From a virus: a stretch of 27,319 nt of DNA. The notes under the pieces are model-generated. The model searched no databases. It saw only the letters and a list, made by a program, of their open reading frames with translations, and was not told the DNA's origin. Location of the stretch: IMG/VR virus record IMGVR_UViG_3300042936_000502, positions 1 to 27,319 of that record. One strand, written 5' to 3'. Positions 7,996 through 27,018 of the stretch are shown one piece after another. A program made the position numbers and the translations under genes. Within the stretch, counting starts at the first letter, position 1. The number at the start of each line of letters is the position of its first letter.

Positions 7996-8271
7996 GTGGA
8001 TGACAATGTGGCTTTATGCTGCCGATGTGGTGCGACTTGGAAAGTCAACACGCATAAGCGCAAAAGAAAAGACCTCAAATGTCAGTCTTGCCGGATGCAC
8101 CGAGCCTTGGTTATCAAGTATGGCTCAGAGAAGTGCATACCTTGGCAGGGTGACTTTGACAAGCAGACGCTTAGCATCCCTATTTTTGACGGCAAGCCAG
8201 TCCTACCTGGCATACGATCTTGTGGACACCTTGACTGCACCAATCCCAACCATGTCATAGGTAGCCACTAG
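7996..8271 (+). CDS. Small zinc-finger protein, HNH-like fold possible
   Basis: A 91-residue protein from GTG 7996 (GTG 8008 also possible), nine bases after the helicase. It has an N-terminal Cys4 cluster (CCRCGATW ... CQSC) in a basic context (THKRKRKDLK), then CIPWQGDFD, then a C-terminal CGHLDCTNPNHV. The last motif resembles the Cys/His zinc-binding core of HNH_3-type nucleases and related actinophage zinc proteins. A DNA-binding or nicking role near the replication proteins is plausible but not shown. The start is weakly supported by ribosome-site sequence. Confidence 0.65.
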   Translation: MDDNVALCCRCGATWKVNTHKRKRKDLKCQSCRMHRALVIKYGSEKCIPWQGDFDKQTLSIPIFDGKPVLPGIRSCGHLDCTNPNHVIGSH

Positions 8272-11269: not shown

Positions 11270-12404
11270 CTTGGAACCAGCACCAAGAGTAGAAACGCCT
11301 AAAGAGTACCGACCTGCTTTCGAGTTTGATGGCAACGAGGGTTGGGCGCAACTACCAGCAACATCGGGTGTACCTAGCTTTGATGACTTCCTAACCCAGC
11401 AGGGCTTTGACCCTGATGAGTTTGAGGTCACCGGAACTCCACGCACATCGCGCTGGCAACGCTATGACGGCGAATGGCTATCGAGCTACCGCTTCACCTT
11501 TAGGCGCAGGGTAGCAAACCTTGATTTGCCATTGCTTTACTCACAAGCCAAGAAAGCCTACAAGCCTAAGAAAGACTTCAGAACGACTTCTGAAAAGGCT
11601 TTGGTCATTCTTTGGTCTGACTTACAGGTTGGTAAAGTTGACCACCGAGGCGGCATCGAAGCCATGATTGCCAGAGTAGAAGAAACAAAAGAAAAGCTTG
11701 TTGCGCTGCTAAAGAAAGAAAAGCCAGCCAAGGTTATCTTTGTTGACTTAGGTGACACAGTAGAAGGCTTTGACAACACAGGCGGCAACCAACTCCAGAG
11801 CAACGACCTCAGCCCGATGCAACAGGTTGACATCGCAACCACCTTGGCTTGGGATCACTTGAAGCTACTGGCTCAATACAGCGATGACATTACCTACGCT
11901 TCGGTTGGCTCGAACCACTGCCAGTGGCGTGTCAGGGGTAAGCAGCAAGGCACACCAACCGATGACTGGGGTATCCACATCGGGCGCACACTTGCAAGGC
12001 TGGCAAAAGAAACAGAGATGCCCATCAAATTCTATGAACCTCAAAAGCATGACGAGTCATTAGCCATAGACATCTTTGACGACCAGTTCCACATACTCGG
12101 TATCTGGCATGGACACCAAAGCCCTAGACCTGACCAAGTGCCTACATGGTGGCGACAGCAAGCTTTCGGCAAGCAGCCTGTTGGTGACGCAACAATAGGG
12201 GTGTCGGGTCATTTTCACCATCTTCGCGTTCTCGAACTCGGTTCTACTTCAAGAGGATCATCGCGCTTCTGGATTCAGGCAAGCACTATGGACAACGGCT
12301 CAGGCTGGTGGCGACTACGCTCAGGCGAGGACTCAGTGCCAGGGTTAGTGACCTTTGTGCTTGACAAGGGCGTTGACTTCACCGGAACTGTTTACAAGTT
12401 GTGA
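11259..12404 (+). CDS. Calcineurin-like metallophosphoesterase
   Basis: A 381-residue protein from GTG 11259, chosen because AGGAAAG lies about ten bases upstream and it overlaps the previous stop by only 11 bases; a TTG at 11229 is possible. An N-terminal region of about 110 residues precedes the phosphoesterase core: WSDLQVGK (Asp near 121), VDLGDTVEGFD, VGSNHCQW (the GNHD-like motif), WHGHQ and GHFHH. These place it in the metal-dependent phosphoesterase/nuclease superfamily that includes SbcD/Mre11. In actinophages such genes lie between early genes and DNA-modification genes; a DNA-processing function is likely but the substrate is unknown. Confidence 0.85.
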   Translation: MLDNLEPAPRVETPKEYRPAFEFDGNEGWAQLPATSGVPSFDDFLTQQGFDPDEFEVTGTPRTSRWQRYDGEWLSSYRFTFRRRVANLDLPLLYSQAKKAYKPKKDFRTTSEKALVILWSDLQVGKVDHRGGIEAMIARVEETKEKLVALLKKEKPAKVIFVDLGDTVEGFDNTGGNQLQSNDLSPMQQVDIATTLAWDHLKLLAQYSDDITYASVGSNHCQWRVRGKQQGTPTDDWGIHIGRTLARLAKETEMPIKFYEPQKHDESLAIDIFDDQFHILGIWHGHQSPRPDQVPTWWRQQAFGKQPVGDATIGVSGHFHHLRVLELGSTSRGSSRFWIQASTMDNGSGWWRLRSGEDSVPGLVTFVLDKGVDFTGTVYKL

Positions 12405-12475
12405 CCTTAGACCTACACACTCAAGGTTTCTTAGATGCCTTGGGTCGCATAGATGCAAGAAAAAAGAAAGGGAAA

Positions 12476-13915
12476 ATGAAAATAGGAAGCTTGTTTAGCG
12501 GTTACGGCGGTCTTGACTTAGCTGTATCAAAGCTGACAGGTGCTGAGGTTGCTTGGCATTGTGAGTGGGAAGCTGCACCAAGCCAAATACTTGAGGCACA
12601 CTTTCCAGGCGTTCCGAACTACCGAGATGTTAGCAAGGTTGACTTTACACAAGTAGAACCTGTTGACATTCTTACAGGCGGCTTTCCTTGTCAAGATTTA
12701 TCTTTGGCAGGTAAGCGAGCGGGACTTGAAGAAGGAACTCGGTCAGGTCTGTGGTCAGAGTTTTACAGAGCAATACAAGAAATAAAACCAAAGTTAGTCA
12801 TCATCGAAAATGTTAGGGGTTTACTAAGTGCAAAAGCCAACAATGGTATGGAATACACAGATGAAGTATTGGGAACTTTCAACGGAAAGCCAGCTATTCG
12901 CGCACTCGGAGCCGTTCTTGGCGACTTGGCCGACATCGGGTACGATGCAAAATGGGCAGGTGTTCGAGCTAGTGATGCCGGAGCGCCACACCAACGATTC
13001 CGAGTCTTCATCACAGCCTACCCAAGCGGGGGGGGGCAGAGCCTTCCAACGCCAACAGTCAGTGATCAATACACAAGCAATTTATCCAGCACCCAGCAAA
13101 AGCCAGGCTCCATGCACTCAGTAACTTTGGCTCAAGTTTTTCACAAGACTGAATTGTTTGAAGTGCCTGATTCTGCTTTATTGCGAAGCCCAACAGCTAG
13201 TCAGGGTGAAGGCGGAGCGTTAGGTGAAGCAGAAGCGCGTAAGCGTGGGAACACAGTTGGCATTAGAGATCAAGCAATGGACTTAGCTAAATTACAAGGA
13301 TACAAAGTGAGTAGAGAAGCTGACAACTTGTTACCAACCCCAATCGTTAGAGATTACAAAGACGGCTCGGCTGCTCAATCTAGAAATGGCAAAGTCAGCA
13401 CTGACACAGTAGCTAGAGCAATCTTCAACAGCGGTGAGGTTCTACTCGGCACACCAAGAACTAGCTCAGCCAACGGATCAACACCAAAGCAAGTAGCTGC
13501 TGGCGCACCTAAAGCAAGGTTAGAGGACCAAGTATTACTACCGACACCAACAGTTGCACAAGGTCGCAATGAAACATCAGGCAGACAAGAGGGATCAAAG
13601 CATCACTCAGGTACAACTTTGAATGATGTTGTTTATAAAACTGCTTGGGGTAAGTTCGAGCCAGCCATAAGACGCTGGGAATCTGTTATTGATAGACCAG
13701 CACCTGAGCCAACAAAGCCAGATGGCAAAGAAGGAAACCATAGACTGAGTTCAAAGTTTACCGAGTGGATGATGGGGCTACCTGACGGCTGGATAACAGA
13801 CATCGGACTGAAGCGTAACGATGAACTAAAAGCCTGTGGCAATGGAGTAGTGCCTCAACAAGCTGAGCTAGCCCTAAGCTTGCTAGGCATCAAAGAAATA
13901 CTAGAAAGAAGCTAA
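12476..13915 (+). CDS. dcm: C5-cytosine DNA methyltransferase
   Basis: A C5 cytosine methyltransferase of 479 residues from ATG 12476, which has AGAAAGGG just upstream and puts motif I (SLFSGYGGLDLA) at the N-terminus as usual; GTG 12401 would add 25 residues and overlap the previous stop. Motif IV GGFPCQDLS has catalytic Cys72, motif VI is IIENVRG, and motif VIII is GAPHQRFRVF. The following 230 residues, the target-recognition region, contain repeated LPTPT/LLRSPT blocks common in phage Dcm proteins. Motifs IX-X lie at MMGLPDGW and GNGVVPQQAELAL. It would protect phage DNA from host restriction. A G9 tract codes Gly185-187, between the catalytic and recognition parts. Confidence 0.92.
   Translation: MKIGSLFSGYGGLDLAVSKLTGAEVAWHCEWEAAPSQILEAHFPGVPNYRDVSKVDFTQVEPVDILTGGFPCQDLSLAGKRAGLEEGTRSGLWSEFYRAIQEIKPKLVIIENVRGLLSAKANNGMEYTDEVLGTFNGKPAIRALGAVLGDLADIGYDAKWAGVRASDAGAPHQRFRVFITAYPSGGGQSLPTPTVSDQYTSNLSSTQQKPGSMHSVTLAQVFHKTELFEVPDSALLRSPTASQGEGGALGEAEARKRGNTVGIRDQAMDLAKLQGYKVSREADNLLPTPIVRDYKDGSAAQSRNGKVSTDTVARAIFNSGEVLLGTPRTSSANGSTPKQVAAGAPKARLEDQVLLPTPTVAQGRNETSGRQEGSKHHSGTTLNDVVYKTAWGKFEPAIRRWESVIDRPAPEPTKPDGKEGNHRLSSKFTEWMMGLPDGWITDIGLKRNDELKACGNGVVPQQAELALSLLGIKEILERS
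13028..13036 (+). repeat. G9 homopolymer inside the methyltransferase gene
   Basis: Nine consecutive G form three in-frame GGG codons right after motif VIII and before the target-recognition region. Loss or gain of one G would shift the frame. With one G fewer, reading would move into a frame that stops at about 13124, separating the catalytic half from the recognition half. Homopolymers of this length are classical slipped-strand sites; an assembly artefact is also possible. Confidence 0.85.
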
Positions 13916-14097
13916 TGCCAATCTACGACTATAAGTGCAACACCTGTGACCTAAAGATGACACTCATAAGGAAGATAAGCGAACCCACTCCGATTCCATT
14001 GTGCGCTAACTGTGTAAAAGACCTAGTTAGAGTTTATGACTCACCTGGACTCAGTTTCAAAGGCACAGGTTGGGCCGGCAAAGAAAATAAAAAATGA
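13915..14097 (+). CDS. FmdB-like zinc-ribbon protein
   Basis: A 60-residue zinc ribbon: it starts MPIYDYKCNTCD and has a second Cys pair in LCANC, then ends SPGLSFKGTGWAG. This is the FmdB/Zn_ribbon_8 pattern (PIYxYxCxxC ... CxxC ... FKGxG). The family is widespread, small and of unclear function, suggested to be regulatory. It begins at the ATG overlapping the methyltransferase stop (TAATG), and its stop overlaps another ATG (ATGA at 14094) that leads into the second G9 tract. Confidence 0.85.
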   Translation: MPIYDYKCNTCDLKMTLIRKISEPTPIPLCANCVKDLVRVYDSPGLSFKGTGWAGKENKK

Positions 14098-14106
14098 GGG
14101 GGGGGG
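14098..14106 (+). repeat. G9 homopolymer at the 5' side of the HNH gene
   Basis: A run of nine G starts one base after the TGA stop of the FmdB-like gene (14095-14097), itself overlapped by ATG 14094. If translation starts at ATG 14094, tract length decides whether the frame reaches the HNH domain. If it starts at ATG 14157, the tract is leader sequence. A second, G6 run lies just before ATG 14157. Two G9 runs within 1.1 kb and none seen elsewhere in the window is notable. Confidence 0.85.
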
Positions 14107-14156
14107 TATGCTCAAAGCATGTCCTACAAGAACTCAAAAAAAATCGGGGGGCCGTT

Positions 14157-14492
14157 ATGCCTAAGATGCCCTGCCTAGTTTGCAAAAAACTAACAGACGG
14201 AAACTCAAGATGTGAAGCCCACCAGAAAATGTGGGATGACCAAGCCGAAGCTAAACGGCGAGCGCGTAAGCTAGCCACCGGTCAATATTCAGGTGACTAC
14301 AAGGCAAGGGCAAGGATGGTCAGAGAGAACGCCTATGTCTGCCACCTGTGCAACGAAGGCCCTAAGCTCAATGACCCTTGGCAAGCTGACCACATCAACC
14401 CTGGTGACCCTTACAGCCCACTAGCTGCTGCCCATCGATCTTGTAATGCCAGACGAGGCAACAAACCAATCAAAGATTCGGTTGAAGACTGA
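14157..14492 (+). CDS. HNH endonuclease near terminase genes
   Basis: From ATG 14157, 111 residues: a zinc-type start (PCLVCKKLTDGNSRCEAHQ), a basic helix (QAEAKRRARKLA), and the HNH core YVCHLCNEGPKLNDPWQADHINPGDPYS ... AAHRSCNARRGN, with ADHI and the HRSCN His/Asn residues in place. HNH proteins of this type sit just before terminase genes in many siphophages and assist DNA cleavage in packaging. Here 3.7 kb separates it from the small terminase. The frame is open upstream to ATG 14094 through the G9 tract, giving a possible 132-residue form. Confidence 0.8.
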   Translation: MPKMPCLVCKKLTDGNSRCEAHQKMWDDQAEAKRRARKLATGQYSGDYKARARMVRENAYVCHLCNEGPKLNDPWQADHINPGDPYSPLAAAHRSCNARRGNKPIKDSVED

Positions 14493-14567
14493 GAAAGATT
14501 CCGATTCGGTTCGGTTCGGTTCAAAATTTCAAAGATTCGGTTCGAAAAAATTCGGTCAGATTCGGTT
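14475..14567. repeat. Array of GATTCGGTT repeats with a tandem TTCGG run
   Basis: GATTCGGTT occurs at 14475-14483 (inside the end of the HNH gene), 14503-14511, 14534-14542 and 14559-14567, spaced 28, 31 and 25 bases. The second copy continues into a tandem TTCGG run up to 14521, and TTCGGTCA is at 14551-14558. Four nine-base copies within 93 bases cannot be chance. The array runs straight into the SOS-like boxes, so it is likely a protein-binding region for regulation, packaging or replication. Confidence 0.7.
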
Positions 14568-14599
14568 GGAAATTCTGACAGACTGACCCAAAAACACTG

Positions 14600-14654
14600 T
14601 CGAACACTTGTTTCGAACATCTGTTCGAAGGACCCTAATCGAACGCTTGTTCGA
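14600..14654. promoter_or_regulatory. Three clustered LexA (SOS) box-like sites
   Basis: Two perfect palindromes match the actinobacterial SOS box form TCGAAC-N4-GTTCGA: 14612-14629 (extended arms TTCGAAC and GTTCGAA) and 14639-14654. A third, imperfect copy overlaps on the left (14600-14615, TCGAAC-N4-GTTTCG). The two perfect sites are 26 bases apart. LexA binds such sites in mycobacteria and relatives and is removed upon DNA damage. No -35/-10 pair close by was convincing; the next gene starts at 15032, so the regulated promoter may lie here or further downstream. Confidence 0.75.
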
Positions 14655-14656
14655 AG

Positions 14657-14946
14657 ATCTTCAAGCGACACCCGCGCCCCGCTACTAGCAGGCCCCTAGG
14701 GAAACCCGCCCCCGAAACTTAGCCCCCGCCCGTGCCGTGTCATCGAATGAAGGGCCTAAACCCCCAAAAATTACGCCTAACTAAATGTGCGGCAGACACC
14801 TAGGGAACGCCAAAACCGCTATACCCCGCTTGAATGACCGAATTACCGCCCAAAGATCTTTACACCGCGCCCCTGGTTTAAGGGCCAAAACCCCGCCCCT
14901 GCCCCCGCCCCGTGAAGGCGCAACCGCCCTAAACACGCCAATAACC
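14657..14946. other. C-rich, G-poor noncoding stretch left of the small-gene operon
   Basis: About 290 bases hold no credible frame on either strand. The plus strand has many C-runs (CCCCCGCCC, CCGCCCCTGCCCCCGCCCCG) with few G, unlike the coding regions. It contains CCCCTAGGGA at 14693-14702, which recurs at 18052-18061 in the right-hand flank, and a copy of the AACCGCTA motif at 14814-14821, also repeated in the right flank. It may be structural RNA, a binding region or the edge of an acquired segment. Confidence 0.5.
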
Positions 14947-15010
14947 AAATTTGCCTAAAATTTGCCAAAATTACCCAAAATTTGCTAAATTCTAGATATG
15001 GCAAATTGCC
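14947..15010 (+). promoter_or_regulatory. Phased A-tract repeats with candidate promoter and palindrome
   Basis: AAATTTGCC (14947) is followed by ten-base units at 14957, 14967 and 14977 (AAAATTTGCC, AAAATTACCC, AAAATTTGCT) with exactly ten-base period, which predicts intrinsic bending. A -35-like TTGCCA (14962-14967) and -10-like TAAATT (14986-14991), spaced 18 bases, lie within them. GGCAAATTGCC (15000-15010) is a perfect palindrome that repeats the unit in inverse orientation. AAAGAAGGGG and the TTG start at 15032 follow. This is the likely promoter/operator of the small-gene operon. Confidence 0.5.
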
Positions 15011-15031
15011 AAATAAAGAAGGGGTAATAAA

Positions 15032-15286
15032 TTGAATAATCTACACGAAACTACCGAACTAACCGAAGAACTAAACAAGCTACCTATTGTTAGGGCGGTT
15101 AGTTATGAATTTCCGGGTATGTGGGTAATCATCCTAAAAGATAACCGCATATTTGATATGGGCGATGTTAACGGCCCTTTTGGATGGAATGACATCGAAT
15201 GTCAATTCTTAGGTGAAACCGAAGCAACCGAAGCTAAAGATATTGCCCGCGATTTTGCGGAATGGGTAAAGGGGTTACAAGCATGA
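15032..15286 (+). CDS. Hypothetical small protein, first gene of small-gene operon
   Basis: An 84-residue acidic protein from TTG 15032 with AAGAAGGGG as ribosome site. It has a Thr/Glu-rich start, a beta-like middle (AVSYEFPGMWVIILKDNRIFDMG) and a helical end (EATEAKDIARDFAEWVKGL). All ten Glu codons are GAA and both Gln codons CAA, the bias of the whole operon. No family is recognised. Its stop overlaps the next ATG. Confidence 0.65.
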   Translation: MNNLHETTELTEELNKLPIVRAVSYEFPGMWVIILKDNRIFDMGDVNGPFGWNDIECQFLGETEATEAKDIARDFAEWVKGLQA

Positions 15287-15405
15287 ACCCCTTTATTGGC
15301 AGACTAAACAAATTGCTTCTAAGGCTAACTATTATCTTGGGCTTTTATTTTGCCCTAATCATTACGCCAATAATTTTTGAAGGCGTGAATCTTCTAACCA
15401 AATAA
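15283..15405 (+). CDS. Very small single-span membrane protein
   Basis: A 40-residue frame whose ATG overlaps the preceding stop (ATGA). A basic start (NPFIGRLNKLLLRL) leads into one hydrophobic span of about 18 residues (TIILGFYFALIITPIIF) and a short polar end. The coupled junction and the clear membrane segment support it, as does the absence of any other gene in this 140-base gap. Function unknown. Confidence 0.6.
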   Translation: MNPFIGRLNKLLLRLTIILGFYFALIITPIIFEGVNLLTK

Positions 15406-15425
15406 ACAAGAAGGGAACTAAAGAT

Positions 15426-15626
15426 ATGTATTACGCGGAATTAGATATTCGCAATTACACATTCCGAACTATTAGCAAAACCGAAGAAGAAGCCTTACAA
15501 GCTCTCAAAAAATTTTGGCTAAGTAAGCGTAAGCCTTGGGGCTTGACGCTTGAATGGCAACAAGTAGCGAATGACGGATACATAAGAATCTATGAACTTG
15601 AACTAAACAAAATAACCGAAGAATAA
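15426..15626 (+). CDS. Hypothetical small protein
   Basis: A 66-residue protein with AAGAAGGGAACT before ATG. It has the order beta strand, helix, beta: YYAELDIRNYTFRTI, then EEEALQALKKFWLSK, then YIRIYELELN. This short alpha/beta arrangement resembles small phage host-modifier proteins, but no family is recognised. All Glu codons are GAA and all Gln codons CAA. Confidence 0.65.
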   Translation: MYYAELDIRNYTFRTISKTEEEALQALKKFWLSKRKPWGLTLEWQQVANDGYIRIYELELNKITEE

Positions 15627-15641
15627 GAAGGGAACCAATAA

Positions 15642-15857
15642 ATGAAGAAGCAAGTAAGAAGAAGCTATCTAGAAGAAGCTGGTTTAGATTTTGCCCGCGT
15701 CTATCCTGATGAACTAAACATAACCAAAGATCATTCTGGCGCTTATCTAGTGTCTGCCGTATTTGAAGGATACAGACACGCCTTGACCTATATGGGCTAT
15801 ACAAAAAAACAAGCGATACAAAAATACCTAGACACCTATAACAAGAAGGGAATATAA
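15642..15857 (+). CDS. Hypothetical small basic protein
   Basis: A 71-residue protein with AAGAAGGGAACC before ATG. It has a basic start (KKQVRRSYLEEAG), a beta-like middle (GAYLVSAVFEGYRHALTYMG) and a C-terminal helix (TKKQAIQKYLDTYNKKG). The last codons AAG AAG GGA ATA double as the ribosome site of the next gene, so its C-terminus KKGI is partly dictated by that signal. Confidence 0.65.
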   Translation: MKKQVRRSYLEEAGLDFARVYPDELNITKDHSGAYLVSAVFEGYRHALTYMGYTKKQAIQKYLDTYNKKGI

Positions 15858-15860
15858 AGA

Positions 15861-16118
15861 ATGAATGAAGCAACCTATAACCAAGAAGCAATGTATGACA
15901 CCGACGCGTTAGCCAAATTATTTATTGGGCTACTGAAGAATGGATATCTAGCTATAAATATGAAGCTGGTTATCGATCTTATTGAACGCGATGTGCCAGA
16001 CACTAGGCCGTGCGACACCTGCCAGGCCGTGCTACTTGACGCAGACACCTATAAAGAAGAATTAGGGTTTTGCGTTGAATGCCAACATGCTTACTTTGAA
16101 GAAGGGAACGGCAACTAA
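15861..16118 (+). CDS. Small zinc-ribbon-like protein
   Basis: An 85-residue protein. The N-terminal half is helical (TDALAKLFIGLLKNGYLAINMKLVIDLI). The C-terminal half has two Cys pairs, CDTC and CVEC, about 20 residues apart with a hydrophilic loop, typical of a zinc ribbon, then HAYFEEGNGN. The end encodes the GAAGAAGGGAA ribosome site for the next gene, and TAATG links them. Zinc binding is inferred from the two CxxC pairs. Confidence 0.65.
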   Translation: MNEATYNQEAMYDTDALAKLFIGLLKNGYLAINMKLVIDLIERDVPDTRPCDTCQAVLLDADTYKEELGFCVECQHAYFEEGNGN

Positions 16119-16429
16119 TGACTAGCAATAAATTCTTTGAATTGTGCGACACCGCGCCAGACTATGCGGCAGATACCGCGAACTTGTTTAGCTGGTGTGA
16201 AGGGAACTACGCGTTTCCCGCCCCGTCGAGTCTGTATCTTGACTTAGTTGGTTGGAGTCAAGAAGAGCATGGTGAAAACCTAACTAGTCAAGCAATGCCA
16301 GATTTGGGCTATTTAGAGATTGATCTGTTAGCTAAGGCGCTAACGGAATATGCAACCCGCCCAAATGACGTTAGGCAATTTATAAATACCCTAATGAATA
16401 GCTATACCGAAGAAGAAGGGAACGATTAA
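16118..16429 (+). CDS. Hypothetical acidic protein
   Basis: A 103-residue protein starting at the ATG that overlaps the preceding stop. It is acidic and helical, with two Cys (residues 10 and 27) that do not form a CxxC pair, an aromatic middle (SLYLDLVGWSQEEHG) and a helical end (VRQFINTLMNSYTEEEG). The C-terminal EEEGN is coded by the ribosome site of the next gene. In layout it resembles small antirestriction-like phage proteins in being short and acidic, but I see no diagnostic motif. Confidence 0.65.
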   Translation: MTSNKFFELCDTAPDYAADTANLFSWCEGNYAFPAPSSLYLDLVGWSQEEHGENLTSQAMPDLGYLEIDLLAKALTEYATRPNDVRQFINTLMNSYTEEEGND

Positions 16430-16431
16430 GA

Positions 16432-16611
16432 ATGTATGACCGAATAACAATTACCCCGCTAGTTGCTATTGGCGGGCAATGTAACTATTGCCATATAGAT
16501 ATAGATGAAACCGCAACAATTTACCAAGGCCGCAAATTCTTCTTTATTTGCGATGGATGCGGTCACGAATATGATCTAACGCTAGATGAATGGATGCAAG
16601 TAAATGTATAA
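16432..16611 (+). CDS. Small zinc-ribbon-like protein
   Basis: A 59-residue frame from ATG 16432, three bases after the preceding stop, with GAAGAAGGGAAC upstream. It has two Cys pairs: CNYCH near residue 17 and CDGCGHEYD near residue 40, with a beta-type spacer (ETATIYQGRKFFFI). This is a compact zinc ribbon. It overlaps the next gene by eight bases. Function unknown; a nucleic-acid or protein contact role is typical for such folds. Confidence 0.65.
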   Translation: MYDRITITPLVAIGGQCNYCHIDIDETATIYQGRKFFFICDGCGHEYDLTLDEWMQVNV

Positions 16612-16846
16612 AGAAGAACGCCTAACCATTAGGCAATTACAAGAGATACTGAAGCAATATGAACCGGATGCGCCAGTATTTTGGCAAATCTATACACACA
16701 CTGAAGCCGCATTACCCGAAGAAGATTTTGGGGCGGTTGCTAGTTCGCTAATGAATGACCAAGAATTCTTGGAAGATCTACACGAACTAATAACCGAACG
16801 CGCTTACGACATACACACACAACTAAAAGAAGGGAACCAAAACTAA
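16604..16846 (+). CDS. Hypothetical acidic helical protein
   Basis: An 80-residue protein overlapping the previous gene by eight bases. LTIRQLQEILKQYEPDAPVFW opens it, a pattern also seen in short phage proteins that pair a helix with a beta strand; the rest is acidic helix (EFLEDLHELITERAYDIHTQL). The end KEGNQN is coded over the GAAGGGAA ribosome site of the next gene and the stop overlaps that gene's ATG. All seven Gln codons are CAA. Confidence 0.65.
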   Translation: MYKEERLTIRQLQEILKQYEPDAPVFWQIYTHTEAALPEEDFGAVASSLMNDQEFLEDLHELITERAYDIHTQLKEGNQN

Positions 16847-17082
16847 TGGGGTATTACCTAGAAGGCAACGGCTACCAAGTAGACGGATCGCAATTCAAAA
16901 TCTATTATCCAGGGCCAGAACTTGAAACCCTAGGCGGTTGCGCTAGTTGCAAAACTATGCAATCGCGCCTTGAGTCAAAAGCGCTTTGGGTTGATTTTGA
17001 TAACACTGGTTATCTGATTGAAGTCTGCAAATTTTGCGCAGAAGATTATTACCCCGAAGCGGTGAAGATCAATGAACGCTAA
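16846..17082 (+). CDS. Small zinc-ribbon-like protein
   Basis: A 78-residue protein. Its N-terminal part is Gly/Tyr-rich (YYLEGNGYQVDGSQFKIYYPG). Two Cys pairs follow, CASC near residue 32 and CKFC near residue 61, separated by a beta-type segment (ALWVDFDNTGYLIEV). It is the third protein in this operon with two CxxC pairs, so zinc- or metal-binding proteins are a theme here. It overlaps the next start by 11 bases. Confidence 0.65.
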   Translation: MGYYLEGNGYQVDGSQFKIYYPGPELETLGGCASCKTMQSRLESKALWVDFDNTGYLIEVCKFCAEDYYPEAVKINER

Positions 17083-17359
17083 CCGGACACGCGCCATACT
17101 GGCGCAACAGAAGGCACGGGAACTAGCAACCCCTAAGCCGTTGCCCGAAGGCTTCACGCTGCCCGCGCTAACCCGCGATGAACGGAAGGCGATCTATGCC
17201 CCGCGCCCATCGAGTAGCGCCCCGCAACAATTACAAGGCCCGCAATGGGTAAGAGCGTGGCGAACTACTACACGCGCAACTTACGGCCTAACCGCATTAC
17301 TAGCCGTATTATTTGGCGGGGTAATCGCTAAAGAGAGCAAGAAGGGAATAAAGCAATGA
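17072..17359 (+). CDS. Basic protein with C-terminal membrane segment
   Basis: A 95-residue protein. Residues 1-65 are basic and Pro/Ala-rich (RTRAILAQQKARELATPKP, DERKAIYAPRPSSSAPQQ). Residues about 69-87 are hydrophobic (YGLTALLAVLFGGVIA), and the end is ESKKGIKQ, again shaped by the AAGAAGGGAA ribosome site for the next gene. It may be a tail-anchored protein facing the cytoplasm. No family is recognised. Confidence 0.6.
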   Translation: MNANRTRAILAQQKARELATPKPLPEGFTLPALTRDERKAIYAPRPSSSAPQQLQGPQWVRAWRTTTRATYGLTALLAVLFGGVIAKESKKGIKQ

Positions 17360-17616
17360 GTGACTACACGCTAACAACTAGCGCTAATGGTTTAGGTGTA
17401 TGGCAATGTCAAATAACTTACCCATATCCAGGCTTAGGCAATAGTTATGAAGCGCTAAAGATTATCGAGCGTAGTCACATAAGCGCTAGAAGATCAATAA
17501 GAAGGGCAATACAAGAACGAAGCGCAACTAAAGTTAGGCGCTTACGCTACCGCGTGAAGGCTAACGATTATGACGCAATGAACCGGATACACGGCCTAAC
17601 TATTGAAGAAGCATAA
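17356..17616 (+). CDS. Hypothetical basic protein, last gene of small-gene operon
   Basis: An 86-residue protein starting at an ATG overlapping the previous stop (ATGA) with AAGAAGGGAA upstream. The N-terminal half is beta-like (YTLTTSANGLGVWQCQITYPYPG) and the C-terminal half basic and helical (SARRSIRRAIQERSATKVRRLRYRVKA), suggesting nucleic-acid contact. It is followed by a strong hairpin, which closes the operon. Confidence 0.65.
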   Translation: MSDYTLTTSANGLGVWQCQITYPYPGLGNSYEALKIIERSHISARRSIRRAIQERSATKVRRLRYRVKANDYDAMNRIHGLTIEEA

Positions 17617-17635
17617 CTAAACACCCAACACCGCT

Positions 17636-17663
17636 AACCCCTAGGCCTAACAGCTTAGGGGTT
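17636..17663 (+). terminator. Hairpin closing the small-gene operon
   Basis: AACCCCTAGGC (17636-17646) pairs with GCTTAGGGGTT (17653-17663) in an 11-base-pair stem with one G-T pair and a six-base loop. It lies 20 bases after the last gene's stop. The following T-rich part (TTTAGCTTTA) is weaker than at the other terminators here, but stem strength and position support termination. Confidence 0.65.
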
Positions 17664-18186
17664 TAGCTTTACCCGAAGCGCCCCCGCCCCCCGTGCGGCA
17701 CGGCTAGCCCGAAGCAATAACAACTAACTAAGTAAGCAACGGAATGCCCTAACCGCTACCCCCTAGCCCGTGCCAGCTTGACCGCTAAAGATCAACCCAA
17801 GAAGAAGAAGCTCGAAGCCCCTGCCCTAATGACTAAGGGCGTAAGGGATACCCCCCGCCTAACACGCCCCCGCCCCCCGCCTAGGCCCTAAGCCTTGACC
17901 TAATAAACCAATAGGCCTAAGCCCTTAGCCCTAGAAGGCCATAGAACGCTTATACAAGGCATTACCTAATAAACACGCAAAACACTAGGCCCCTATTCTG
18001 GCACGCCCTGCACGCGCCACACACAGCGCAACCGCAACCCAAAACCGCTACCCCCTAGGGACAGCCCCCAGGGTAGGGCAAATCCTCGACACGCCGAACG
18101 CACCGACACCCCGCCCCGCCACTTCTGTAAAGCTCCTAGGTTCAAAAGTTTTCTGATAGCCTTGAAAACAAAGGAAGGGATGCCCT
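17664..18186. other. C-rich noncoding region with repeats upstream of terminase
   Basis: About 520 bases have no credible gene; frames on both strands are short and lack ribosome sites. The plus strand is rich in C-runs and CTAG. AACCGCTACCCCCTAG occurs exactly at 17751-17766 and 18043-18058, with a variant at 17630-17644 and part of it at 14814-14821 in the left flank. CCTAATAAAC is repeated near 17901 and 17969. A short hairpin (17691-17703) is present. Its place just before the small terminase makes it a candidate packaging (cos/pac) or regulatory region. AAGGAAGGGA at the end is the ribosome site of the terminase gene. Confidence 0.55.
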
Positions 18187-18636
18187 ATGCCAAACCCAGC
18201 CAAGCCGATTGAGCAAAAACGCTTACTAGGCAACCCTGGTCATCAGATTTTGCCGAAAGAAGGCGAATTGGCCTCAATCGCGCCTGGACAGCGCCAACCA
18301 GTCCGAGAACTCGGTCAAGACGGCTTACAGCTCTGGGATGATGTCTACAAATACGCCTTGCCTTGGATTGGTGCGATAGATGTCCACCTGCTCCAGATGA
18401 CTTGCGAGCAATACGACAGACGGCGCGAGATTATGGAACGCTTGCAGCACGACTACGACTGGCACTTATACAAACAACTCAATGACTTAGAAAGCATCAT
18501 CTCGTCAAACATCAATAAGCTCGGCTTTTCACCAGAGGCTAGATCAAGACTCGGTTTAGCCGAAGTCAAGCGAGAGTCAAAGCTAGAAGAACTATTTGCC
18601 AGAAGGACAAAGCGTGAGCTTGAAAAGCGTCAGTAA
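18187..18636 (+). CDS. terS: Terminase small subunit, P27 family
   Basis: A 149-residue protein with the family's opening KPIEQKRLLGNPGHQ, a helical middle (DVYKYALPWIGAIDVHLLQMTCEQYDRRREIMERL) and the conserved end GFSPEARSRLGLAEVKRESKLEEL. P27-type small terminases bind the packaging site on phage DNA and load the large subunit. It overlaps the large terminase by 23 bases, and a repeat-bearing noncoding region lies directly upstream. Its codon use is mixed (by my count CAA 5, CAG 6), unlike the neighbouring small-gene operon. Confidence 0.9.
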   Translation: MPNPAKPIEQKRLLGNPGHQILPKEGELASIAPGQRQPVRELGQDGLQLWDDVYKYALPWIGAIDVHLLQMTCEQYDRRREIMERLQHDYDWHLYKQLNDLESIISSNINKLGFSPEARSRLGLAEVKRESKLEELFARRTKRELEKRQ

Positions 18637-25169: not shown

Positions 25170-25184
25170 GCTATGGTTTATCTA
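25169..25184 (+). promoter_or_regulatory. Extended -10 promoter giving a possible leaderless transcript
   Basis: TGC plus TATGGT (25169-25177) is an extended -10 element placed at the end of the terminator T-run. The glycosyltransferase ATG follows at 25184, six bases after the hexamer, where transcription itself would start, and no ribosome site precedes it. A leaderless message, common in Actinobacteria, is the simplest reading. Confidence 0.4.
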
Positions 25185-26374
25185 TGCCTACAAATAAAGA
25201 GAAACTAAATGGCGCAGTAAGCGTCTGGTCTAACAGCTACAACGCACCAACCGGATACGGCCAACAGGTCACAATGCTGATTGACCGACTCAAGCGAGCA
25301 AACCTTGATGTCGCAATGCTTTCCAACTATGGACTTGAGGGAATCCCAAGCTCAATACAAACGCCTTATGGCAAAATTCCACATTACCCAAGAGGTTTAG
25401 ATCAATACTCAAACGATTCGGGACCACAGGATCACAAGACCTTTATAGCTGACAAAGATAAGCCGAACCTTCTTATCAGCCTTTACGATGTTTGGGTAAT
25501 GAAGTCAAAACAGTATGACGACTTTCCAATCGCTGCTTGGACACCACTCGACCATGTGACTCTGCCACCAGGTGTCGAGAGTTTCTTACGCAAAGAGAAT
25601 GTTACGCCAGTTGCGATGTCACCTCATGGCGTTAGACAGCTAACAGCTAAAGGCATTGAGTGTGAGTACGCACCTCACGCGATTGACACAAAGGTTTACA
25701 AGCCAAGCTACAAGATTGGCAATCACGACATAAACGAATACATGGGTCTAAGCCCAGATAACTTTGTAGTCGGAGTAGTGGCAGCTAACAAGGCATCAGG
25801 TCTAGTTCACCGCAAAGCCTATGGTGAGGTAATCCTTGCCTTTAGTGTCTTTGCTAAAGACAAACCTGATGCTGTGATGTATCTTCACACCGATTCATTC
25901 GGTTTGTCAGGTGGCTGGAACTTGCTCAACATCCTTGCCTCGCTGGGAGTAAAGAAAGAACAAGTAATCTTTCCAAACCCACAAGACTACCGATTCGGTT
26001 TAGCTCAGTCTGATCTTGCTGCTCTTTATACAAGGATGGATGTCTTGCTAGCACCTAGCTTGGGTGAAGGCTTTGGAGTTCCATCAGTCGAGGCTCAAGC
26101 TTGTGGCACCAGGGTTATCGGTTCTAACTGGGCGGCAACACCTGACCTAGTAAGTTCTGACTCTTGGTTGACTGAGGGACAACTAACCTGGGATGCCGGT
26201 CAAGACGCTTGGTGGATGACCCCAAATGTATCTAGCCTGGTCAATGCGCTAGAGGAATCTTACAAAGCAGATCGTGGAACATCGCAGGTTGCAATTGACT
26301 TTGCCAGCCAGTTTGATGTCGAGAAGGTCTGGGATAATAATTGGATGCCGATTCTAAAGAAGTTGCTCAAGTGA
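25184..26374 (+). CDS. GT4-family glycosyltransferase
   Basis: A 396-residue GT-B glycosyltransferase. The N-terminal domain starts SVWSNSYNAPTGYGQQV, the usual opening of GT4 enzymes (sugar-acceptor side, Gly-rich loop). The C-terminal domain has VVGVVAANKASGLVHRKAYGEVILAF near residues 195-220 and the donor-binding E-x7-E in EGFGVPSVE near 295. It transfers a sugar from a nucleotide-sugar donor. It stands between capsid and head-tail connector genes with its own terminator-bounded unit, so glycosylation of capsid or tail protein is a reasonable inference. The next gene starts at an overlapping GTGA. Confidence 0.88.
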   Translation: MPTNKEKLNGAVSVWSNSYNAPTGYGQQVTMLIDRLKRANLDVAMLSNYGLEGIPSSIQTPYGKIPHYPRGLDQYSNDSGPQDHKTFIADKDKPNLLISLYDVWVMKSKQYDDFPIAAWTPLDHVTLPPGVESFLRKENVTPVAMSPHGVRQLTAKGIECEYAPHAIDTKVYKPSYKIGNHDINEYMGLSPDNFVVGVVAANKASGLVHRKAYGEVILAFSVFAKDKPDAVMYLHTDSFGLSGGWNLLNILASLGVKKEQVIFPNPQDYRFGLAQSDLAALYTRMDVLLAPSLGEGFGVPSVEAQACGTRVIGSNWAATPDLVSSDSWLTEGQLTWDAGQDAWWMTPNVSSLVNALEESYKADRGTSQVAIDFASQFDVEKVWDNNWMPILKKLLK

Positions 26375-27018
26375 TTCCTGTATTAGCTTTCCCAACTTAC
26401 GCTAGACACGATCTGGCGCAAAGAATGATTGACTCGATTGATTACCCAGTCGAGCATCTGGTAATTGTAGATAATTCTGGCAAGAGAGTATTTGAGCCAG
26501 TCAAGCCTGACATTGTAAAGAACATGTGGCTTATACAAGTTCCTTTTGGTTTAGGGCCAACCGCAGCTATGAACCTTGTCGTCAAGTCAACACCACACGC
26601 TAAGTATTGGATTATGGCTAGCGAGGATACTTATTGTGCGCCTGGAAGCTTAGAGAAGATACATAATGAGGTAGATACTGAAGCCCTAAACTTTGTGGAT
26701 GCTGTCCCTGACTGGTGCTTTATTGCACTTGGTGAAGGTGTAGTCCTAAAGGCTGGCCTAGCGAGTGAGTTGTTTCACCCTCTTTACTTTGAGGACAATG
26801 ACTATGAGAGGCAGATTGACGCTCTCGGTATTCCAAAAAAGCGTATTCATGCGACTATTCACCATGACAACAGCTCTACGATTGGCGCTGGATTCGGTCC
26901 CAAAAACGCTTACACTTTCTCTATAAATCAAAGGCTTTACGAAAAAAGAATAGCTGAGAACAACATGAATAGCGGTGAGTGGTCCCTAAAGATAAGGCGA
27001 GAGAACTCTTGGGACTAA
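26371..27018 (+). CDS. GT2-like glycosyltransferase
   Basis: A 215-residue protein from GTG 26371, overlapping the preceding stop (GTGA). It has the Rossmann-type GT-A start VIPVLAFPTYARHDLAQRMIDSI, LVIVDNSG, LGPTAAMNL and a DxD-like acidic site in IMASEDTYCAPG near residue 90, then FEDNDYERQI. This is the core of GT2-type transferases acting on proteins or polysaccharides. It works next to the GT4 gene, so the two may add successive sugars to one acceptor. An in-frame ATG at 26341 would give a longer form overlapping the GT4 end. Confidence 0.8.
   Translation: MIPVLAFPTYARHDLAQRMIDSIDYPVEHLVIVDNSGKRVFEPVKPDIVKNMWLIQVPFGLGPTAAMNLVVKSTPHAKYWIMASEDTYCAPGSLEKIHNEVDTEALNFVDAVPDWCFIALGEGVVLKAGLASELFHPLYFEDNDYERQIDALGIPKKRIHATIHHDNSSTIGAGFGPKNAYTFSINQRLYEKRIAENNMNSGEWSLKIRRENSWD

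What the first reader, a model, noticed from the sequence alone, without database searches (positions are those of the whole stretch)
15032..17616. Eleven-gene small-protein operon with its own codon usage
Eleven tightly coupled small genes (40-103 residues, none recognised) form one block. By hand count over the block, Gln is CAA 35 to CAG 2 and Glu GAA 68 to GAG 6, while the small terminase gene right after it has CAA 5 to CAG 6 and GAA 9 to GAG 6. Three proteins carry paired CxxC motifs and two have membrane segments. Ribosome sites are nearly all AAGAAGGGAA. This points to separate ancestry or separate translational control, and is the best candidate for an undescribed host-takeover or defence/counter-defence module.
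Basis: partly seen in the sequence, partly recalled or inferred. Interest (0 to 1): 0.65.

Follow-up and report, generated by a model that had tools for sequence, protein, structure and literature searches.

The report
Swappable counter-defence operon at phage end
Eleven small phage genes next to the cut end of the genome form a swappable set whose unusual DNA spelling is shared by unrelated genes in the same slot of sister phages, and in several sisters that slot holds relatives of known proteins that disarm bacterial anti-virus enzymes.

Summary
In detail: CAA:CAG 35:2 and GAA:GAG 68:6 in the block, against 161:129 and 260:221 in the rest of the window. But it is not a codon or translation effect. 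It follows from a strand-specific avoidance of short words (TC, CTC, GAG, CAG, GTC) in all three frames and in the non-coding flanks. The avoidance starts at two actinobacterial LexA/SOS boxes (14613, 14639) and ends at cos (18110-18119), the right end of the packaged genome. A model trained only on other phages finds the same limits (14666-18120; 408 bits, next best 14).

In 29 related viral contigs the slot is fixed but the genes are not: 317 proteins, 88 families, one near-universal gene. All 29 are TC-poor. Two relatives lack the whole unit. In relatives the slot carries an Ocr-fold family (8 of 29; Z 8.0-9.8 to T7 Ocr) and an ArdA-like family (3 of 29), both DNA-mimic anti-restriction types. 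No window protein is recognised.

Best reading: an optional, exchangeable, LexA-box-controlled counter-defence operon at the probably first-injected end; a new variant of a known kind. The TC avoidance is unexplained: C-to-T mutation and avoidance of RNA structure do not account for it.

The parts
14094..14492 (+). HNH endonuclease, left neighbour of the unit; in relatives that lack the unit it sits directly beside cos
   Evidence: phrog_144, 5.8e-8; HNH directly before the right end in G007 and phiPsal1 and in phiC31
14475..14569 (+). array of ATTCGGTY repeats, often about 11 bp apart in relatives; probable protein-binding or control array
   Evidence: sequence; present in all relatives with this stretch sequenced; absent from G007 and phiPsal1 right ends
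14613..14628 (.). LexA/SOS box TCGAACATCTGTTCGA, perfect match to TCGAAC-N4-GTTCGA; an imperfect further copy overlaps at about 14597
   Evidence: conserved in relatives; Streptomyces LexA consensus tCGAAC-N4-GNNCGa in PMC9380542; similar boxes upstream of Microbacteriaceae lexA
14639..14654 (.). second LexA/SOS box TCGAACGCTTGTTCGA, perfect
14666..18120 (+). TC-poor sequence domain: strand-specific avoidance of TC, CTC, GAG, CAG and GTC
   Evidence: leave-one-out Markov segment, 408 bits, next best elsewhere 14 bits; frame and non-coding analysis
14655..15031 (+). non-coding leader
   Evidence: no supported ORF; leaders pooled over 27 loci have TC obs/exp 0.40
15032..15286 (+). g1, 84 aa, acidic (pI 4.3), family in 5 slots
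15286..15405 (+). g2, 39 aa from ATG 15286 (47 aa from ATG 15262), one hydrophobic segment
15426..15626 (+). g3, 66 aa, orphan
15642..15857 (+). g4, 71 aa, basic
15861..16118 (+). g5, 85 aa, acidic, paired CxxC; N-terminal part related to parts of larger slot proteins in relatives
16118..16429 (+). g6, 103 aa, pI 4.05, net charge -14; family related to phrog_33275 (unknown function)
   Evidence: 0.0044; relative L117, 7.9e-7
16432..16611 (+). g7, 59 aa, paired CxxC zinc-binding candidate
   Evidence: YHS 0.0044, below cut-off; phrog_21896, 1.4e-4, unknown function
16604..16846 (+). g8, 80 aa, acidic (net charge -11)
16846..17082 (+). g9, 78 aa, paired CxxC
17072..17359 (+). g10, 95 aa, basic N-terminus and one hydrophobic segment; the near-universal gene of the slot (26 of 29)
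   Evidence: alignment A1
17356..17616 (+). g11, 86 aa, basic; related genes in several relatives
17633..17663 (+). hairpin after the last gene (terminator-like), a similar hairpin in most relatives inspected
17617..18109 (+). C-rich, TC-poor non-coding tail up to cos
   Evidence: TC obs/exp 0.24 at 17670-18109
18110..18119 (.). cos, inferred 10-nt overhang CCCGCCCCGC
   Evidence: relatives' contigs start exactly at 18120 and contig L084 ends exactly at ..CACCGACAC
18187..18636 (+). small terminase subunit, first gene at the left end of the packaged genome
   Evidence: phrog_83, 9.3e-18

Best explanation
The block is an optional, exchangeable accessory operon at the right end of a cos-type phage genome (an uncultivated phage whose closest cultured relative by terminase infects a Microbacteriaceae host). 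Shown: it lies between an HNH gene and cos, starts at a conserved array plus LexA-type boxes, is TC-poor on the coding strand from the boxes to cos, and has fast gene turnover in a fixed slot. Inferred: the right end enters the cell first (as in lambda, where the terminase end is packaged first), so these genes can be made early; they are switched by the host LexA repressor; and they are a changing set of small proteins that blunt host defences. The last point rests on relatives, whose slots hold an Ocr-fold family and an ArdA-like family. For the eleven window proteins themselves the function is inferred from the slot.
For: Fixed slot, changing content: phages with TerL 93-98% identical keep HNH, Fmd and TerS but share mainly g10; 29 slots give 88 families, 43 of them singletons. 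Unit present or absent as a whole: G007 and phiPsal1 have HNH then cos, with no array and no boxes; phiC31 also has HNH beside the end. Limits: model segment 14666-18120, against boxes ending at 14654 and cos at 18110-18119; most of the ten other phages give limits within about 100 nt of boxes and end. Boxes: two perfect, conserved, matching the Streptomyces LexA consensus (PMC9380542) and boxes upstream of Microbacteriaceae lexA. No phage S24 repressor found. Counter-defence: an Ocr-like family in 8 of 29 slots with phrog_2568 at 9e-4, Ocr as the top PDB sequence hit although E=0.5, AlphaFold pLDDT 94, the top three Foldseek chains all Ocr although E 0.7-1.0, and VIA Z 8.0-9.8 over 97-98 of 102 residues against 4.3 for the next row. 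ArdA-like family: phrog_36653 at 7.2e-9 and Pfam ArdA at 0.0029. Half of 165 slot proteins have pI below 5, against 24% of the rest of the window.
Against: None of the eleven window proteins matches a known anti-defence family above noise. Pfam ArdA is below its curated cut-off, and a shared fold shows no function. If LexA represses the operon, it would be off in an undamaged cell, which fits badly with protection at the moment of entry. No promoter was identified; promoter-like sites are at the chance level. Injection polarity is by analogy with lambda. g10, the only near-universal gene, is unexplained.
Confidence: 0.62

Rival explanations
1. A right-end accessory operon that serves SOS or DNA-damage conditions (for example lysis timing or adjusting host physiology in damaged cells) rather than counter-defence. 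LexA boxes make it a damage-response module, and the anti-restriction genes are occasional passengers.
For: LexA boxes conserved in nearly every slot; Ocr-like and ArdA-like families together are in 11 of 29 slots; small zinc-ribbon and membrane proteins are common.
Against: Gene turnover in a fixed slot is typical of arms-race genes, whereas a damage programme should keep its effectors. The only functionally recognisable families are anti-restriction types.
Confidence: 0.2
2. A closed gene pool: right-end modules recombine only with each other (at the array and box region and at cos), so the odd composition is an old inherited signature rather than a current constraint. This concerns the signature and can be true together with the counter-defence reading.
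For: Conserved sequence at both edges could serve for module swapping; no slot family was found outside the slot.
Against: The block replicates with the rest of the genome in the same host, so it should drift to the same composition. Yet the signature persists in G006 (TerL 59% identical, none of its slot genes grouped with any other slot's at the clustering threshold; TC 0.56), and homologues of F20 and F33 elsewhere have normal TC, 0.94-1.23.
Confidence: 0.3
3. The bias is translational: codon choice tuned to tRNA supply in early or stressed infection.
For: Codon counts alone look like it.
Against: The same words are missing in frames 2 and 3 and in non-coding flanks; AAG, TTG and GCG are not avoided.
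Confidence: 0.03
4. TC loss is mutational, for example C-to-T deamination of the non-template strand.
For: Strand-specific and TC-centred, like some deaminases.
Against: At aligned sites TC is replaced by TT no more often in the slot (23% of changes) than elsewhere (27%); TA, TG, CC and GC all take part. GT is also depleted.
Confidence: 0.05

Closest known systems
T7 early region with gene 0.3 (Ocr)
   Same: Small acidic anti-restriction proteins in the region that enters first; relatives of this phage carry an Ocr-fold family (Z 8.0-9.8).
   Different: Here LexA boxes, a cos-ended unit, many swappable genes and a strand-specific TC-poor signature; no Ocr-like protein recognised in the window itself.
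Anti-defence genes in the leading region of conjugative plasmids (PMC11541004, found)
   Same: A region thought to enter first, holding a variable collection of anti-restriction and other anti-defence genes.
   Different: dsDNA phage end instead of plasmid ssDNA transfer; LexA-type boxes at the start of the unit; different gene families except ArdA-like.
P2/P4 hotspots of antiviral systems (PMC9122126, found)
   Same: Fixed position with non-homologous accessory genes in related phages.
   Different: Those hold anti-phage defence systems; here the recognisable genes are counter-defence, and the sequence of the slot itself is constrained.
Pontimonas phage phiPsal1 and Streptomyces phage phiC31
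   Same: Similar order of terminase, portal and capsid genes, and an HNH gene at the right end.
   Different: They lack the block; phiPsal1 also lacks the array and the boxes at its right end. HNH is directly beside the right end. No TC-poor domain: lowest 2-kb value 0.72 and 0.86.

Membership tests
Ocr family (DNA-mimic anti-restriction), for slot family F10 in relatives | Ocr fold | tested here: met
   VIA Z 8.0-9.8 to six Ocr structures over 97-98 of 102 residues, next row 4.3; Ocr ranked first by Foldseek and by PDB profile search, E 0.5
Ocr family (DNA-mimic anti-restriction), for slot family F10 in relatives | Strong negative charge mimicking DNA | tested here: met
   pI 4.05-4.33, net charge -18 to -24 in three members
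Ocr family (DNA-mimic anti-restriction), for slot family F10 in relatives | Inhibits type I restriction or BREX | not testable with these tools
   needs an assay
Ocr family (DNA-mimic anti-restriction), applied to the window's own proteins | Sequence or fold relationship of a window protein to Ocr | tested here: inconclusive
   no window protein matched an Ocr family; acidic g6 gave a poor model, pLDDT 48
ArdA anti-restriction, for slot family F33 in relatives | ArdA sequence family | tested here: inconclusive
   phrog_36653 anti-restriction 7.2e-9, Pfam ArdA 0.0029 below cut-off; no relevant PDB match
LexA/SOS regulon | Operator matching the host clade's LexA box at the unit's start | tested here: met
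   two perfect TCGAAC-N4-GTTCGA, conserved, matching boxes near Microbacteriaceae lexA
LexA/SOS regulon | LexA binding and induction by DNA damage | not testable with these tools
   needs binding and induction assays; the host is not known
Temperate phage control region | Integrase and S24-type repressor in the genome | tested here: inconclusive
   no PF00589, PF00239 or PF00717 in ten records, some incomplete

The most novel reading that the evidence does not exclude
The TC-poor domain is a present-day, strand-specific constraint on the first-expressed RNA (or on the matching single DNA strand) from the LexA-box region to the genome end. Something in the host or phage, such as an infection- or SOS-triggered ribonuclease or a strand-reading defence, recognises UC-containing sequence, and every gene resident in this slot must lose it.
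Probability: 0.3. Interest if true: 0.88.

Novelty: new variant of a known kind. Interest (0 to 1): 0.63.

Why it matters
It defines a repeatable slot (array, LexA boxes, small-gene operon, cos) from which about 88 families of small, mostly unrecognised proteins can be read in one phage group, enriched for counter-defence candidates by position and by two recognised DNA-mimic families. It also presents a clear puzzle: a 2-5 kb stretch with nucleotide words avoided on one strand, in all frames and outside genes, ending at regulatory and physical landmarks. If it is a current constraint, it marks an unknown factor that reads that strand.

Tried and rejected
Translational codon adaptation: rejected, bias in all frames and non-coding. 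Restriction-site avoidance on double-stranded DNA: does not fit the main effect, since GA is not depleted in the genes while its complement TC is; palindromes ACGT, TTAA and CCGG are avoided inside and outside alike. C-to-T deamination: rejected as sole cause. Selection for an unstructured transcript: not supported, slot sequences are slightly more folded than base-shuffled copies, z -0.75 against -0.49 elsewhere. Simple RNA-transcript model: weakened, as TC avoidance continues past the hairpin after the last gene to cos. RNA families: none in the window. Close phage DNA relatives: none in the phage collection. Structure of g6: model too poor (pLDDT 48), not searched. PADLOC and NCBIfam on 147 slot proteins: only weak hits. 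Slot families in known phages: F20 near the right end of Gordonia phages and in an Erythrobacter phage, F13 in Pseudomonas and other phages, none with a known function. Papers on dinucleotide avoidance in phage early genes: nothing relevant found. The first Pfam scan of the window block covered ten of the eleven proteins; g11 was scanned later against all four libraries as part of A2.
Full report
What the window is. G000 is a 27,319-bp IMG/VR virus record with no close DNA match in the phage collection. It carries RecE, RepO-like, DnaB, RusA, exonuclease, cytosine methyltransferase, HNH and small-terminase genes. The closest cultured terminase is that of Pontimonas phage phiPsal1, at 52%. The contig is assembled across cos: many relatives' contigs begin exactly at the base corresponding to 18120, and contig L084 ends at the base before an inferred 10-nt overhang CCCGCCCCGC. 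So the block is the far right end of the packaged genome, and the small terminase gene is the first gene at the left end.

The observation. The codon counts are exactly as reported and highly unlikely by chance. However, trinucleotides in all three frames, and in the non-coding flanks, show the same depletion. CTC falls from 10.3 to 0.8 per thousand in the genes, and GAG is absent from 864 nt of flank. Over twelve genomes the TC dinucleotide on the coding strand has obs/exp 0.37 in flanks and 0.53 in block genes, against 0.96 elsewhere, while its complement GA is about normal in the genes and only mildly low in the flanks. The codon bias is therefore mostly a by-product of a strand-specific word avoidance.

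Its limits. Sliding windows show the fall starting near 14650 and ending near 18110. A third-order Markov model trained on the other phages finds the segment 14666-18120 in the window (408 bits, next best 14). In most of ten other phages it finds limits within about 100 nt of the LexA-type boxes on the left and of cos or the contig end on the right; in G001 the segment is split in two, and in G003 and L136 it runs 90-180 nt past cos. The left limit coincides with two perfect TCGAAC-N4-GTTCGA boxes at 14613 and 14639. Nearly all relatives with that stretch sequenced have such boxes, preceded by an ATTCGGTY array. The boxes fit the Streptomyces LexA consensus (PMC9380542) and sites upstream of lexA in Microbacteriaceae. 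No integrase, resolvase or S24 repressor was found in ten records, so host LexA is the likely reader; this is inferred.

Fixed slot, changing genes. Phages whose large terminase is 93-98% identical keep the flanking genes but carry mostly different genes in the slot. With 29 slots gathered, gene calling by a simple script gives 317 proteins in 88 families, 43 of them singletons; only the g10 family is near-universal, 26 of 29. Gene calls and single-linkage families are approximate. All 29 slots are TC-poor (0.33-0.74). G006, with terminase 59% identical and no slot gene clustering with the others at that threshold, is at 0.56. Two relatives, G007 and phiPsal1, lack array, boxes and genes together: HNH is followed within about 60-230 nt by the right end. 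phiC31 also has HNH next to its right end. No slot family occurs outside the slot in 12 genomes, and homologues of F20 and F33 in unrelated phages have normal TC (0.94-1.23, against 0.45-0.61 in the slot); one short F13 homologue in a Pseudomonas phage is TC-poor as well.

Function. No window protein is recognised. In relatives the slot holds two recognisable families. F10 (8 slots) is Ocr-like: phrog_2568 at 9e-4, Ocr the best PDB sequence match at a non-significant E of 0.5, a confident model (pLDDT 94), the top three Foldseek chains all Ocr at weak E-values, and VIA Z 8.0-9.8 over almost the whole chain with the next row at 4.3. The tool warns that helical proteins can reach middling Z by chance; agreement of sequence, charge and fold is what carries the call. 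F33 (3 slots) is ArdA-like: phrog_36653 at 7.2e-9, and Pfam ArdA at 0.0029 below its cut-off. Slot proteins are often acidic: half have pI below 5, against 24% in the rest of the window. By analogy with lambda (own knowledge), the terminase end is packaged first and the opposite end injected first, which would make this the first DNA to enter, as with T7 gene 0.3 and the leading region of plasmids (PMC11541004).

Why TC is avoided. Substitutions at TC sites are not biased to TT, which argues against deamination. Slot RNA is not less folded than shuffled copies. The avoidance continues past a hairpin after the last gene, so it is either read-through RNA, single-strand DNA, or an old signature kept by recombination among right ends only. 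Because the slot shares replication and host with the rest of the genome, some present constraint seems more likely than pure history, but this is inference.

Verdict. The operon is a new variant of a known kind (accessory counter-defence genes at an entering end); the strand-specific, landmark-bounded word avoidance is the surprising part and remains open.

Noticed in passing
window 12401-13915; G008 and L021 whole: The window has a cytosine DNA methyltransferase and about 2 GATC per kb; G008 (28.6 kb) has no GATC at all and L021 has one, in its slot, and full-length methyltransferase matches are missing there. GATC avoidance may track the methyltransferase.
   Followed up: partly
window and relatives, outside the slot: ACGT is almost absent (6 in 205 kb, expected 319 by a Markov model); ATAT is strongly avoided outside the slot (0.26) but not inside (1.10).
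   Followed up: partly
window 14475-14569: ATTCGGTY repeat array, often about 11 bp apart in relatives, just left of the LexA boxes; could be a replication, partition or regulator site.
   Followed up: partly
window 25184-26374 and 26341-27018: Two glycosyltransferase-like genes after the capsid gene (by eye), at the same place as annotated glycosyltransferases in phiPsal1.
   Followed up: no
L095 (phiPsal1) 8039-8259: Two perfect and one near-perfect LexA-type boxes near a reverse-strand SAM methyltransferase gene between two glycosyltransferase genes.
   Followed up: no
L088:2447-2800 and L044:2800-3168: Slot proteins that look like fusions of the window's g5 N-terminal part with g8.
   Followed up: no
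L145 (Gordonia phage ClubL) 2982-3803: A homologue of slot family F20 lies about 3 kb from the right end of Gordonia phage genomes, also among small unknown genes.
   Followed up: no
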